A DNA stretch of 64,000 nt, taken from Nitrosospira sp. 56-18 (GTDB lineage Bacteria; Pseudomonadota; Gammaproteobacteria; Burkholderiales; Nitrosomonadaceae). Below the pieces are notes generated by a model. The model ran no database searches. It was not told where the DNA came from and saw only the letters and a list, made by a program, of their open reading frames with translations. The number at the start of each line of letters is the position of its first letter. Positions within the stretch are counted from its first letter, which is position 1. Where the stretch lies: the NCBI GenBank assembly GCA_001899235.1, contig MKVR01000050.1, forward strand, positions 116,735 to 180,734. The letters run 5' to 3'. Both the position numbers and the translations under genes were made by a program. Of this stretch, positions 42,825 to 48,669 are shown in pieces.

Positions 42825-44930
42825 ATGACCAACCCCCTGCTTGATTTCTCCGGATTGCCGCGCTTTGCGGAAATCAGAACCGAACATATCAGCCCGGCTG
42901 TCAGCGAACTGCTGGCCGAAGGCCGCTCCGTCATCTCAACGATACGCGCCGATACGGCGATACCGAAGTGGCAGAATTTCGTGCAGCCGATGGAAGACGC
43001 GAATGAGCGTCTTTCCCGCACATGGGGGCAGATCTCGCACTTGAACGCGGTAGTAAACACTCCGGAACTGCGGGAAGTGTATAACGCCAATCTCCCCTTG
43101 GTAACGCAATATTATGCTGAACTTTCCCAGGATCAGGTGATGTTCGAAAAGTTCAAGCAGCTTGGACAGGACACGGAATTCGAGAACTTGAGCCCCGCCC
43201 GGAAAAAAATTATCAATGATGCATTGCGTGATTTCCGTTTGGGAGGAGCCGAACTGCCCCCGGAAAAGAAAGAACGCTTTCTCCGTATCCAGGAAGAATT
43301 GTCGGCGCTGTCTTCCAAATTCAATGACAATTTGCTGGATGCAACCAATAACTTCATGCTGCATGTCGAAGACGCCGGGGAAATTTCAGGGATTCCGGAC
43401 GATGTGCTGCAAACCGCCAGCGAATTGGCTAAAAAAGCCCAGGCATCGGGCTGGAAATTCACCTTGCATGCTCCATCATATATACCGCTAATGCAGTATG
43501 CGGACAGTCGGCATCTACGGGAGAAAATGTATCGCGCCTATGTCACCCGGGCCAGCGAGCTCGGTCCTTCCGGCCAGACATCGGACAGCACACCCGATCT
43601 CGACAACACCCCGCTTATCGCAAGGATACTGGAACTACGCAAGGAAGAGGCCCAGCTTCTGGGATTCGATTGCTACGCGGAAGTATCGCTTGCGACAAAA
43701 ATGGCATCGACTCCCCGGCAGGTGCTGGATTTTCTCGGCGAACTTGCCACGAAGGCGCGGCCCTATGCGGAGCTGGACCTGAAGGAGCTACGCCAGTTTG
43801 CATCCGACAGACTGCAAATCCAAAAGCTCGAAGCCTGGGACCTTGCCTATGTGAGCGAAAAACTTCGGCTGGACCGCTATGCCTTCTCCGAACAGGATGT
43901 GAGGCAATATTTCCCCGAGCCCAGCGTATTACGGGGCATGTTCGGGCTCGTGGAAAATCTGTACGACATTGTAATTGCACCGGTGAAAGCAGCCGACGCG
44001 CAACTCTGGCACCCCGACGTCAAGCTTTTCACTATCCGGAGCAGGAAGGAAGAATTGATCGGCCTGTTTTATCTTGATCTCTATGCGCGAGCCGGGAAGC
44101 GCGGCGGAGGATGGATGGACGATGCCATCAGTCGTCGGCGTATTGAGCCGAAACAGGCGGGAGAGCCGTCGATACAGGCGCCGGTGGCGTACCTGAACTG
44201 CAATTTCTCCGCCCCGGTTCATAATAATGGCGAGGCTCGCCCGGCTCTGTTCACCCATGATGAAGTCATCACCTTATTCCATGAATTCGGTCATGGGCTG
44301 CACCATCTGCTTACTCGCATGGAGGATCTGGGCATCTCCGGAATCCACGGTGTGGAGTGGGACGCAGTCGAACTGCCAAGCCAGTTCATGGAGAATTTCT
44401 GTTGGGAATGGGAAGTATTAAGCAATATGGCCAGGCATGTGGAGAGCGGTCAACCCATTTCGCATGTGCTATTTGATCGCATGCTGGCTGCAAAGAATTT
44501 TCAAAGCGGCCTCCAAATGCTCCGGCAGATCGAATTTGCCTTGTTCGATATGCGTATCCATTCCAATTTCGATGCGGGCACGGACAAGACGCCGCTGCAG
44601 TTGCTGGACGAGATCCGCAGTCAGATTGCCGTTGTCATGCCACCCGCATGGAATCGCTTTCCTAACAGCTTCTCCCACATTTTTGGCGGCGGCTATGCGG
44701 CTGGCTATTACAGTTACAAATGGGCCGAGGTGCTGTCTGCGGATGCCTACAGCGTGTTTGAAGAAAGTGCTACCGGCGATGTCATCGATCCCGGCAGCGG
44801 AGCACGCTTCCGTGACGAAATTCTCGCGGTAGGCGGAAGCCGTCCCGCACTGGAATCGTTTATCGCGTTTCGCGGACGCGAACCGAAGATAGACGCACTC
44901 CTGCGCCATAATGGAATGGCTACCCCCTGA
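42825..44930 (+). CDS. prlC: Oligopeptidase A, M3 family metallopeptidase
   Basis: 701 residues, the size of OpdA. The zinc motif is ITLFHEFGHGLHHLL (HExGH) with the third ligand Glu in GISGIHGVEWDAVELPSQFMENF. The FGGGYAAGYYSYKWAEVLSADAY region forms the substrate-binding side. A soluble cytoplasmic peptidase that degrades short peptides, including cleaved signal peptides. It follows the pyr genes after ~100 bases and may be separately transcribed. Confidence 0.95.
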   Translation: MTNPLLDFSGLPRFAEIRTEHISPAVSELLAEGRSVISTIRADTAIPKWQNFVQPMEDANERLSRTWGQISHLNAVVNTPELREVYNANLPLVTQYYAELSQDQVMFEKFKQLGQDTEFENLSPARKKIINDALRDFRLGGAELPPEKKERFLRIQEELSALSSKFNDNLLDATNNFMLHVEDAGEISGIPDDVLQTASELAKKAQASGWKFTLHAPSYIPLMQYADSRHLREKMYRAYVTRASELGPSGQTSDSTPDLDNTPLIARILELRKEEAQLLGFDCYAEVSLATKMASTPRQVLDFLGELATKARPYAELDLKELRQFASDRLQIQKLEAWDLAYVSEKLRLDRYAFSEQDVRQYFPEPSVLRGMFGLVENLYDIVIAPVKAADAQLWHPDVKLFTIRSRKEELIGLFYLDLYARAGKRGGGWMDDAISRRRIEPKQAGEPSIQAPVAYLNCNFSAPVHNNGEARPALFTHDEVITLFHEFGHGLHHLLTRMEDLGISGIHGVEWDAVELPSQFMENFCWEWEVLSNMARHVESGQPISHVLFDRMLAAKNFQSGLQMLRQIEFALFDMRIHSNFDAGTDKTPLQLLDEIRSQIAVVMPPAWNRFPNSFSHIFGGGYAAGYYSYKWAEVLSADAYSVFEESATGDVIDPGSGARFRDEILAVGGSRPALESFIAFRGREPKIDALLRHNGMATP

Positions 44931-45047: not shown

Positions 45048-45219
45048 ATTGTTGCAACACCCCTCTTCGGCCGCTAGTATAGCGAACGGTAATCAGATGA
45101 TCCTGCGAGGCTTCCAGCACGCCCTGCGGAATCAAGACTCCAGACTCGCCCAAGGCATCAGGGAGTAAAACAAATGGGAGAGATATCGCATCGCGCCATT
45201 CAATGACAGGAGAATAGAG

Positions 45220-45771
45220 ATGAATCGTATTACCTTGACTGTTGCCATGTTGTGTGGAGCAGTAGTAATTGGCTGCGCACAGACGCCATCAACCCCTCAA
45301 GCGACAAAATATGGCGATGGGGAACTGCCTATTCCGCCGGAATACAAGAGCTGGCCAAAATTTCTTTCTGACGTGCAGCGTACTGACACCAAGCAGGTGC
45401 GTGAGATCTATATCAATCCCATTGGAAATAGCGCGAAAATGGGCGAAGCTTTCCCAAATGGCACCGTTTCGGTAATGGAAATATACAAGGCGCGTGAAGC
45501 CTCTGACGGCACCCCATTAAAAGGGGCTGACGGTAAATTGATAAAAGGGGAGTTGCTCAAGATCGGTGTCATGGGCAAAGGCGCTGGCTGGGGAGAAACC
45601 GTCAACCCTCCCGAACTCAGGAATGGCGACTGGGTTTATGCCATGTATCTGTCCGATGCAAAAACCAAAGCACCTGACGATCTGGCGACCTGCAGGTCGT
45701 GCCACCTGCCGCTGACGGACAAGGACTATGTTTTCCGCTATGACGAGTATTTCCAGAAAAGGGCGAATTAA
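45220..45771 (+). CDS. Cytochrome P460 / c'-beta family haem lipoprotein
   Basis: 183 residues. The signal peptide carries a lipobox (VVIGCAQT), so the mature protein should be a lipoprotein. A single CRSCH c-type haem site lies near the C-terminus. The pattern NGTVSVMEIYKA and NGDWVYAMYLSD fits the P460 fold. In N. europaea cytochrome P460, as I recall, the Lys cross-linked to the haem lies in TVTVKEL; here that position seems to be Met, which would favour an uncross-linked c'-beta-like haem. P460 oxidises hydroxylamine; c'-beta binds NO. AGGAG lies seven bases before the ATG. The alignment is from memory. Confidence 0.85.
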   Translation: MNRITLTVAMLCGAVVIGCAQTPSTPQATKYGDGELPIPPEYKSWPKFLSDVQRTDTKQVREIYINPIGNSAKMGEAFPNGTVSVMEIYKAREASDGTPLKGADGKLIKGELLKIGVMGKGAGWGETVNPPELRNGDWVYAMYLSDAKTKAPDDLATCRSCHLPLTDKDYVFRYDEYFQKRAN

Positions 45772-45860: not shown

Positions 45861-45936
45861 TGGGGAAGCGCTGAACAAATCGCATCCCATCCCGCAAAGC
45901 CGTCGCGCCAACGGAGATTTGTTCAGGACTTCCCTA
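45861..45936. mobile_element. MITE-like family A, copy C (76 bp, internally deleted)
   Basis: Left GGGAAGCGCTGAACAAATC, right GAGATTTGTTCAGGACTTCCC; between them only GCATCCCATCCCGCAAAGCC...GCGCCAAC, the right part of copies A and B. Its right border TA (45935-45936) and first element base give the secA stop codon on the minus strand. The left border is TG and not TA. Confidence 0.8.
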
Positions 45937-48669
45937 GCTGAGCTTGCCGTGGCACTGCTTGTATTTTTTGCCTGATCCGCAAGGACAAGGATCGTTGCGG
46001 CCCACCTTTCCACCCTGCCGGACGAATGGCTGAGGTTTTTCCGCCAGATCCGGTGCTGTTTCTGCCGTATCCTCATTGGCAAGCGCTTCCTCGTAGGGCG
46101 CATGCTGATACTGCACATTGGCCGGCTGACGCGGAGCCTCGGTTACAGCCTCCACCTGTTGCTCGTCTCTTATCTGCACCGTCAGCAGTATGCGGGTAAC
46201 TTCGGTCTTGATCTCTTCGAGCATGGCGGTGAACAACTCGAAAGCCTCGCGCTTGTATTCCTGCTTGGGATTTTTTTGAGCATATCCGCGCAGATGGATT
46301 CCCTGCCTTAAATGATCGAGTGCCGCCAGATGCTCGCGCCAATGTATATCCAGGCTTTGCAGCATTACCGCTCGCTCGTAGTGATGCATGGCCGCAGCCC
46401 CTACCTGCCCCACCTTGCCTGCGTAATGCTCACCCGCTATCGCCGCAACGCGCTCGTCAAGATTATCCGCGTGCAGGTCTCCCTCATTCTCCAGCCATTC
46501 CTGCAGCGGCAACTGCAATAGATATTCGGCGGCAAGCGCCTTTTCCAGTGCGGGAATATCCCACTGCTCCTCGACACTTTGAGGAGGAACATACAGCGCG
46601 ACGATGCTTTTCAGCACATCCTGGCGCATTGCGGCTATGGTCTCCGAGATATCCTGCGACTCGAGCAGCTCATTGCGCTGCTGATAAATCACCTTACGCT
46701 GGTCATTGGCGACATCATCGTATTCCAGCAACTGCTTGCGCATATCGAAATTACGCGCCTCCACCTTGCGCTGCGCATTCTCGATTGCCCGCGTAACCCA
46801 TGGGTGTTCGATCGCCTCGCCTTCCGGCATGTTGAGCTTCTGCATGATGCTGGCGACGCGGTCGGATGCAAAGATGCGCAGCAGCGGATCTTCCAGCGAA
46901 AGATAGAAACGGCTTGAGCCCGGGTCGCCCTGGCGGCCGGAGCGGCCACGGAGCTGGTTATCCACCCGCCGCGGTTCATGGCGTTCGGTACCGATGATGT
47001 GCAGTCCTCCTTGCTTCAGCACTTCATCGTGAAGAGTCCTCCATTGGGTTTGCAGCTCTTCCATGCGTTCGAGTCTGGCTGCCTCGTCGAGACTCTCGTC
47101 CGATCGGACGCGCTCAAGTTCAGGTTCCGGGTTGCCCCCCAGAACAATGTCCGTGCCCCGGCCGGCCATATTGGTCGCGATGGTAATCATTTTTGGACGG
47201 CCCGCCTGAGCAACGATCTCCGCTTCTCTCGCATGCTGCTTTGCATTCAATACCTGATGCGGCAGTTTCTCGCCAGCAAGCAAGCCGGACAGCAATTCAT
47301 TGTTCTCGATGGAAGTCGTCCCCACCAGGACAGGCTGCCCCCTTTCATAGCAGTCCTTGATGTCGGCAATGATGGCACGATTTTTTTCACCCATGGTGCG
47401 GAATACCTGATCCATGCGGTCCACGCGCACCATCGGTCGATGAGTAGGAATGATCACGGTTTCAAGCCCGTAAATCTGCTGAAACTCATAGGCTTCCGTA
47501 TCGGCCGTACCCGTCATGCCGGCGAGCTTCTGATACATGCGGAAGTAGTTTTGAAAAGTGATGGAGGCAAGCGTCTGATTCTCCTTCTGGATGGGTACGT
47601 TTTCCTTTGCCTCGACCGCCTGGTGCAGCCCTTCCGACCAGCGCCTGCCCGACATGAGCCGGCCGGTGAATTCATCCACGATGACCACTTCGCCATTTTG
47701 CACCACGTAGTGCTGGTCACGGTGAAATAGCGCATGGGCCCGGAGAGCGGCGTAAAGATGATGCACCAGATTGATATTTGCCGGATCGTAAAGGCTGGTT
47801 CCAGCCGAAAGCAGCCCGCTTTGCGACAGCAACTTCTCGGCATGCTCGAAACCCGCTTCGCTCAGCAACACCTGCTGGGCCTTTTCGTCCACGCTGAAAT
47901 CACCCGGGCTCTTCTCCGTTTCCTGCCTGACAAGCTTTGGAATCAGGACATTCATGCGGACGTAAATGTCGGTATTGCCTTCCGCCTGCCCGGAAATGAT
48001 CAGGGGGGTGCGCGCCTCATCGATCAGGATGGAATCCACTTCGTCAACGATGGCGAAATGCAGCGCGCGCTGCACGCGCTCGAGCGGATGATTGACCATA
48101 TTGTCGCGAAGGTAATCAAATCCGTATTCGTTATTGGTGCCGTAAGTGATATCGGCCGCATAGGCCGCCTGCTTGTCGCCGTGATCCATCTGCGAAAGGA
48201 TGACCCCGACGCTGACCCCGAGAAACTGGTAAATACGCCCCATCCACTCCGCGTCGCGTCTGGCAAGATAATCATTGACGGTTACCAGGTGCACGCCTTT
48301 TCCAGCCAGGGAATTGAGATAGGCTGGCAGGGTCGCCATGAGTGTCTTGCCCTCCCCAGTTCTCATTTCGGCGATTTTGCCGCTATGCAGAACCATGCCG
48401 CCGATCAGCTGCACGTCAAAATGGCGCATCTCCAACACGCGCTTGCTGGCTTCCCGCACGACGGCGAAGGCTTCCGGGATTAGCGCGTCGATTGCCACGC
48501 CATCAGCTAGGCGCTTCTTGAATTCTTCCGTCTTGGCGCGTAACTCGGCATCGGTCAGCGCCGCAAACTTTGATTCAACCGAATTGATTGTCCCGACTGT
48601 CTGGAAATATTGCTTGATCAGTCGGTCGTTCCGGCTTCCGAAAACTTTCTTGAGCAAATTGTTCAGCAT
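45934..48669 (-). CDS. secA: Preprotein translocase ATPase SecA
   Basis: 911 residues. Walker A is [17 protein letters not shown], the DEAD-like motif [17 protein letters not shown], the arginine-finger region [28 protein letters not shown]. The C-terminal zinc motif [17 protein letters not shown] binds SecB. It drives post-translational export through SecYEG. The stop codon TAG is shared with a MITE-like element at the 3' end. Nevertheless the protein ends within a residue or so of E. coli SecA (…GRLQ), so little or nothing was lost. An intrinsic terminator at 48704-48740 separates it from the M23 gene. Confidence 0.97.

What the first reader, a model, noticed from the sequence alone, without database searches (positions are those of the whole stretch)
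45220..45771. P460-family haem lipoprotein with Met at the cross-linking Lys position
The motif NGTVSVMEIYKA aligns, from memory, with the DGTVTVKEL of Nitrosomonas cytochrome P460 whose Lys is bonded to the haem. Met here would prevent the cross-link, favouring c'-beta-like chemistry (NO binding) over hydroxylamine oxidation. The lipobox also predicts membrane anchoring, unlike soluble P460.
Basis: partly seen in the sequence, partly recalled or inferred. Interest (0 to 1): 0.5.

Follow-up and report, generated by a model that had tools for sequence, protein, structure and literature searches.

The report
Lipid-anchored cytochrome c'-beta with methionine
An ammonia-oxidising soil bacterium of the Nitrosospira group carries a predicted membrane-anchored relative of a known haem protein (cytochrome c'-beta "Met") that has lost the lysine needed for hydroxylamine chemistry; the protein type is already known, but the lipid anchor and its separate family branch do not appear in the papers I could search.

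Summary
ORF 45220-45771 (+) encodes a 183-aa lipoprotein of Pfam PF16694 (Cytochrome_P460). This is not a new departure: the closest solved structure is 7S5O, N. europaea cytochrome c'-beta-Met (Met79 at that place). The query also matches its Arg cap (Arg54 = Arg46) and its missing distal carboxylate (Gly116 = Ala109). So it belongs to the c'-beta-Met kind (CytS), predicted not to oxidise NH2OH. "NO binding" is only part of what is known: c'-beta-Met has an Arg in its pocket and peroxide/ferryl chemistry. Less ordinary: all 29 distinct Nitrosospira/Nitrosovibrio-type sequences have a lipobox and none of 35 Nitrosomonas sequences does. The two forms are about 31% identical and sit in separate clades (one-family clade rejected). 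The gene is in 23/23 genomes of the genus, between prlC and secA in nearly all, while true P460 is in only 11/23. The same genome also has a P460 with Lys and Glu intact. Verdict: real, mostly explained, modest interest.

The parts
45052..45080 (+). candidate promoter TTGCAA-17 nt-TAGTAT
   Evidence: Single match in the window (0.12 expected at up to 1 mismatch). By eye on the alignment, recognisable in 11 of 19 upstream regions of the genus. Only about 8/12 to the sigma-70 consensus and missed by the consensus scan, so tentative.
45207..45214 (+). region of the ribosome-binding site AGGAGA
   Evidence: Sequence; an AGGAG-type site is present in most of the aligned genus upstream regions.
45220..45771 (+). 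cytochrome c'-beta-Met (CytS-type) lipoprotein, 183 aa
   Evidence: PF16694 E 1.6e-26; best PDB match 7S5O by sequence E 4.6e-17 and by fold E 3.9e-11, TM 0.65/0.75.
45265..45276 (+). lipobox V16-I17-G18-C19, predicted lipidated Cys19, followed by Ala20 (not Asp)
   Evidence: a lipobox in 29/29 distinct Nitrosospira/Nitrosovibrio-type sequences and 0/35 Nitrosomonas.
45379..45381 (+). Arg54, equivalent of NeCP-beta Arg46 distal cap
   Evidence: Same alignment column as 7S5O Arg46; invariant in both AOB groups.
45475..45477 (+). Met86, at the P460 cross-link Lys position (NeP460 Lys70, NeCP-beta Met79)
45565..45567 (+). Gly116, at the distal carboxylate position (NeP460 Glu96, NeCP-beta Ala109)
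   Evidence: Gly or Ala in all Nitrosospira/Nitrosovibrio-type and Nitrosomonas sequences.
45691..45705 (+). haem c motif C158-R-S-C161-H162, proximal His
   Evidence: Sequence; His162 invariant.
42825..44930 (+). upstream neighbour prlC-like oligopeptidase (Peptidase_M3)
   Evidence: PF01432 E 8.4e-137; next to the cytochrome in nearly all genus loci. Synteny marker, no functional link.
45934..48669 (-). downstream convergent neighbour secA
   Evidence: SecA domains; conserved order in most genus loci. Synteny marker, no functional link.

Best explanation
The gene encodes the Nitrosospira-lineage form of cytochrome c'-beta-Met (CytS): a c-type, presumably five-coordinate haem protein of the P460/c'-beta fold. 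SHOWN by sequence: haem motif CRSCH with His162; Met86 in place of the cross-linking Lys; Gly116 in place of the proton-accepting carboxylate; Arg54 in the distal-cap column; a lipobox Cys19. INFERRED: the haem is a canonical, un-cross-linked haem c (no 460-nm band); it does not oxidise hydroxylamine; its open distal site under Arg54 binds NO/CO and reacts with H2O2 to give a ferryl, peroxidase-like species; the protein is lipidated at Cys19 and, with Ala at +2, sorted to the periplasmic face of the outer membrane. The most likely job is mopping up or buffering NO and peroxide made during ammonia oxidation. My estimates: about 0.95 that it is c'-beta without a Lys cross-link, about 0.9 that it is a lipoprotein, about 0.5 for the NO/peroxide-handling role.
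For: PF16694. 7S5O is the top match by sequence and by fold. Met, Arg and Gly/Ala pocket positions match 7S5O column for column, and the review's Table 2 gives Met79/Arg46/Ala109 for NeCP-beta. Profile alignment against 25 P460s puts Met86 on the Lys and Gly116 on the carboxylate. Conservation in 29/29 Nitrosospira/Nitrosovibrio-type and 35/35 Nitrosomonas sequences. Gene in 23/23 genomes of the genus and 95/99 good family genomes. The genus is amoA-bearing. NeCP-beta lacks the cross-link, does not oxidise NH2OH, forms ferryl with H2O2 and oxidises guaiacol; K70A P460 gains guaiacol activity (PMC11928373).
Against: Only about 31% identical to the characterised Nitrosomonas type and in a different clade, so activity may not transfer. 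The AlphaFold model is moderate (pLDDT 73, 12-sequence alignment, no haem), so pocket geometry was not examined. No gene neighbour points to NO or peroxide metabolism. The physiological role of any c'-beta is unproven.
Confidence: 0.8

Rival explanations
1. It is mainly a reversible NO (gas) carrier or buffer like McCP-beta, without meaningful peroxide chemistry.
For: c'-beta proteins without the cross-link bind NO and CO, and NO buffering is the common proposal (PMC11928373). NO is an obligate intermediate in these organisms (PMC6967387).
Against: McCP-beta and TtCP-beta have Phe caps and Phe at the cross-link position. This protein has Arg54 and Met86 like the peroxidase-like NeCP-beta.
Confidence: 0.3
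2. It is a hydroxylamine-oxidising cytochrome P460 whose cross-link is made by another residue (K90 or Met86 itself).
For: Same Pfam family and fold; K90 is conserved in the lineage.
Against: K90 never aligns with the cross-link Lys and is Ala in 7S5O. The distal carboxylate is also absent (Gly116). NsP460, with the cross-link but no carboxylate, is inactive. The same genome already has a P460 with both Lys and Glu.
Confidence: 0.04
3. It is an electron-transfer lipoprotein (low-spin cytochrome) with Met86 as an axial ligand, not a ligand-binding protein.
For: Met is a common axial ligand; a membrane anchor suits electron transfer (general knowledge).
Against: In 7S5O the aligned Met79 belongs to a pocket described as open to ligands, with an acetate in it.
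Confidence: 0.05

Closest known systems
Cytochrome c'-beta-Met (NeCP-beta / CytS) of Nitrosomonas europaea, PDB 7S5O
   Same: PF16694 fold, CXXCH, Met at the Lys position, Arg cap, no distal carboxylate, near-universal in its genus
   Different: About 31% identity; the Nitrosomonas form has an ordinary AxA-type signal peptide, this one a lipobox; separate clade and different gene neighbourhood
Betaproteobacterial MAG lipoproteins L077, L079-L083 (Rhodocyclaceae, Hydrogenophilales, Burkholderiaceae, Comamonadaceae, one labelled Gammaproteobacteria)
   Same: Met at the Lys position and lipobox; group with the Nitrosospira form (95/69, 89/91)
   Different: 46-61% identity; Phe in the carboxylate column; some have Lys for Arg at the cap
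Cytochrome P460 (CytL), e.g. NeP460 2JE2/2JE3 and the P460 of the same genome on contig C15
   Same: Fold, CXXCH, PF16694
   Different: P460 has the cross-linking Lys and (active forms) a Glu/Asp; here Met and Gly
Cytochrome c'-beta with Phe (McCP-beta 6HIH, TtCP-beta 7EAD)
   Same: Fold; no cross-link
   Different: Phe61 and Phe cap instead of Met and Arg
CytS of Nitrosospira multiformis, Nmul_A2484 (annotation in PMC4940428)
   Same: Presumably the same gene (inferred; annotated as cytochrome c' beta)
   Different: Sequence under that tag not checked; no anchor or Met is mentioned in the passages read

Membership tests
Cytochrome P460/c'-beta superfamily (PF16694) | Pfam profile over the curated cut-off | tested here: met
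   93.5 bits against 27
Cytochrome P460/c'-beta superfamily (PF16694) | C-terminal CXXCH haem motif | tested here: met
   C158-RS-C161-H162; His162 invariant
Cytochrome P460/c'-beta superfamily (PF16694) | beta-sheet fold of the solved members | tested here: met
   Model pLDDT 73; top PDB match 7S5O, all 25 matches with E <= 0.001 are P460/c'-beta
Cytochrome P460 (catalytic) | Lys at the haem cross-link position | tested here: not met
   Met86
Cytochrome P460 (catalytic) | distal carboxylate (Glu96/Asp102) | tested here: not met
   Gly116
Cytochrome c'-beta-Met | Met at the cross-link position, no Lys | tested here: met
   Met86 = Met79 of 7S5O
Cytochrome c'-beta-Met | Arg distal cap (Arg46 in NeCP-beta) | tested here: met
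   Arg54 in the same column; side-chain orientation not tested
Cytochrome c'-beta-Met | small residue in place of the carboxylate | tested here: met
   Gly116; Ala or Gly in all relatives of both AOB groups
Cytochrome c'-beta-Met | un-cross-linked high-spin haem; ferryl/peroxidase-like activity; no NH2OH oxidation | not testable with these tools
   needs purified protein
Orthologue group of Nitrosomonas CytS (NeCP-beta clade) | same clade and neighbourhood as the Nitrosomonas gene | tested here: not met
   Two clades; a single Nitrosomonadaceae clade is rejected (delta lnL 110, p-AU 6e-75); no shared neighbours prlC/secA/pyrC
Bacterial lipoprotein | lipobox after a short hydrophobic signal, conserved among orthologues | tested here: met
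   VIGC19; 29/29 Nitrosospira/Nitrosovibrio-type sequences
Bacterial lipoprotein | signal peptidase II cleavage and lipidation | not testable with these tools
   needs palmitate labelling, globomycin or fractionation

The most novel reading that the evidence does not exclude
Ammonia oxidisers of one family carry two anciently diverged, non-orthologous c'-beta-Met proteins that exclude each other: a free periplasmic one in Nitrosomonas and an outer-membrane-anchored one in Nitrosospira/Nitrosovibrio, the latter shared with other Betaproteobacteria. Tethering a ferryl-forming, NO-binding haem at the outer membrane would then be a lineage-specific way of intercepting NO or peroxide at the cell surface.
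Probability: 0.35. Interest if true: 0.4.

Novelty: new member of a known kind. Interest (0 to 1): 0.25.

Why it matters
CytS is found in nearly all bacterial ammonia oxidisers and its role is openly unresolved (PMC6967387). All c'-beta-Met biochemistry cited in the review comes from the Nitrosomonas protein. If Nitrosospira, a major soil nitrifier group, uses a diverged, membrane-anchored form, conclusions on NO/N2O handling should not be carried across unchecked. The divergence also offers a reason why it could be missed by similarity search: a genome paper reported cytS absent from N. briensis C-128 (PMC4964001), yet N. briensis Nsp8 has it here (L078).

Tried and rejected
(1) IYKA Lys as the cross-linker: rejected by MAFFT, HMMER and hhalign alignments. 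(2) Wrong start codon or artefactual lipobox: rejected, conserved across the genus with an RBS in place. (3) Functional operon: none; prlC and convergent secA are only synteny markers, and Nitrosovibrio-like (g4) and Nitrosomonas loci do not share them. (4) Terminator and consensus promoter scans gave nothing above chance; the conserved TTGCAA-17-TAGTAT site is kept as tentative. (5) NCBIfam: no hit. (6) AMO search in this assembly: no hit, but the genus has it and several other drafts miss it too, so read as an assembly gap. (8) Comammox Nitrospira cytS, which the literature reports, was not placed in the tree.

Full report
WHAT IS THERE. The ORF at 45220-45771 (+) is a 183-residue protein with a clean start, an AGGAGA ribosome-binding site and a signal sequence ending in the lipobox V-I-G-C19. 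It matches a single Pfam family, PF16694 Cytochrome_P460, at 1.6e-26, and has the haem motif C158-RS-C161-H162. Its remembered comparison is exact: the N. europaea P460 chain reads RDGTVTVKELVSVG.

IS MET AT THE CROSS-LINK POSITION? Yes. Alignments by MAFFT with NeP460, NsP460 and the genome's own P460, and hhalign against 25 P460s, of which 24 have Lys in that column, put Met86 on the Lys. They put Gly116 on the distal carboxylate. The Lys in IYKA is four residues away and never takes the position.

WHAT IT IS. The best solved relative by sequence is 7S5O (E 4.6e-17). By fold of an AlphaFold model (mean pLDDT 73) it is again 7S5O, E 3.9e-11, TM 0.65/0.75, and every match with E <= 0.001 is a P460 or c'-beta structure. 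7S5O is N. europaea cytochrome c'-beta. Its review (PMC11928373) lists Met79 at the Lys position, Ala109 at the carboxylate position and Arg46 as distal cap. The literature name is cytochrome c'-beta-Met. The query has Met86, Gly116 and Arg54 in those three columns. The finding is therefore a member of a described kind.

WHO HAS IT. The host is in the genus of Nitrosospira (named relatives; AmoA in 16 of 23 genomes of the genus). The gene is in 23/23 genomes of the genus and in 95 of 99 good genomes of the family, one copy each. A P460 like the genome's own is in only 11 of 23 genomes of the genus. The host has both: contig C15 carries two adjacent P460-family genes, one with Lys and Glu intact and a second, longer one with Lys but Phe in the carboxylate column. 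So c'-beta-Met is the core protein of the genus and P460 the accessory one, in line with reports that N. multiformis lacks cytL but has cytS (PMC4940428).

TWO FORMS IN ONE FAMILY. All 29 distinct Nitrosospira/Nitrosovibrio-type sequences carry a lipobox; none of 35 Nitrosomonas sequences does, these having an ordinary signal peptide. The forms are about 31% identical. In a 108-sequence tree the lipoproteins form a group with Rhodocyclaceae, Hydrogenophilales, Burkholderiaceae and Comamonadaceae lipoproteins (95/69). The Nitrosomonas proteins, with 7S5O, group with Thiotrichaceae and other gammaproteobacterial proteins (100/100). In a reduced tree a single Nitrosomonadaceae clade is rejected (delta lnL 110, p-AU 6e-75), while the lipoprotein group stands at 89/91, suggestive but not firm. 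Only 142 columns were available. The gene sits between prlC and convergent secA in nearly all genus loci, but not in the Nitrosovibrio-like (g4) or the Nitrosomonas loci examined. Transfer or old duplication with loss are both possible; I did not separate them.

HOW IT PROBABLY WORKS. Without Lys there is no cross-link, and without the carboxylate no NH2OH oxidation is expected even if a cross-link formed (NsP460 is the precedent). An open haem under an Arg, as in NeCP-beta, is reported to form a ferryl with H2O2 and to oxidise guaiacol; removal of Lys70 from P460 also unlocks guaiacol oxidation. I therefore rate NO/peroxide handling as the best guess (about 0.5), above pure NO carriage. These activities are inferred, not shown. 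Lipidation is strongly indicated; Ala at +2 suggests the outer membrane by the E. coli sorting rule (general knowledge, untested in Nitrosospira).

NOVELTY. Met variant, fold and gene are known. I found no paper in the held library that reports the lipid anchor or the two-clade split, but most subscription papers, including the two primary c'-beta-Met papers, are not in it.

Noticed in passing
G000 contig C15 ~76.6-77.8 kb (locus L004:819-2031, - strand): Two adjacent P460-family genes in the same genome: a 197-aa P460 with Lys and Glu (predicted active) and a second of about 220-232 aa with Lys but Phe in the carboxylate column. A similar adjacent pair is seen in some Nitrosomonas genomes and in G002.
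   Followed up: partly
L152 (G096:C1:1308223-1308681): A P460-type (CytL) protein of a Nitrosospira genome with Leu at the cross-link Lys position and Ala for the carboxylate: a natural Lys-to-Leu P460.
   Followed up: no
L087, L095, L097 (Hyphomicrobiaceae and related) and L088, L093, L094, L096, L099, L102, L106, L115: Relatives with Gly or Leu in place of the cross-link Lys and an Arg cap; Gly is not among the substitutions listed in the review passage read (Phe, Met, Leu, Val, Ile, Glu).
   Followed up: no
L078 (N. briensis Nsp8): Carries the lipoprotein c'-beta-Met, whereas cytS was reported as not detected in N. briensis C-128 (PMC4964001). The published absence should be rechecked.
   Followed up: partly
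window 45052-45080: TTGCAA-17 nt-TAGTAT element upstream of the gene, recognisable in about 11 of 19 genus upstream regions; candidate promoter.
   Followed up: partly
G000 whole assembly: No AMO (PF02461) hit in this 99.9% complete draft though the genus has up to three copies; probably repeat collapse or loss in assembly.
   Followed up: partly
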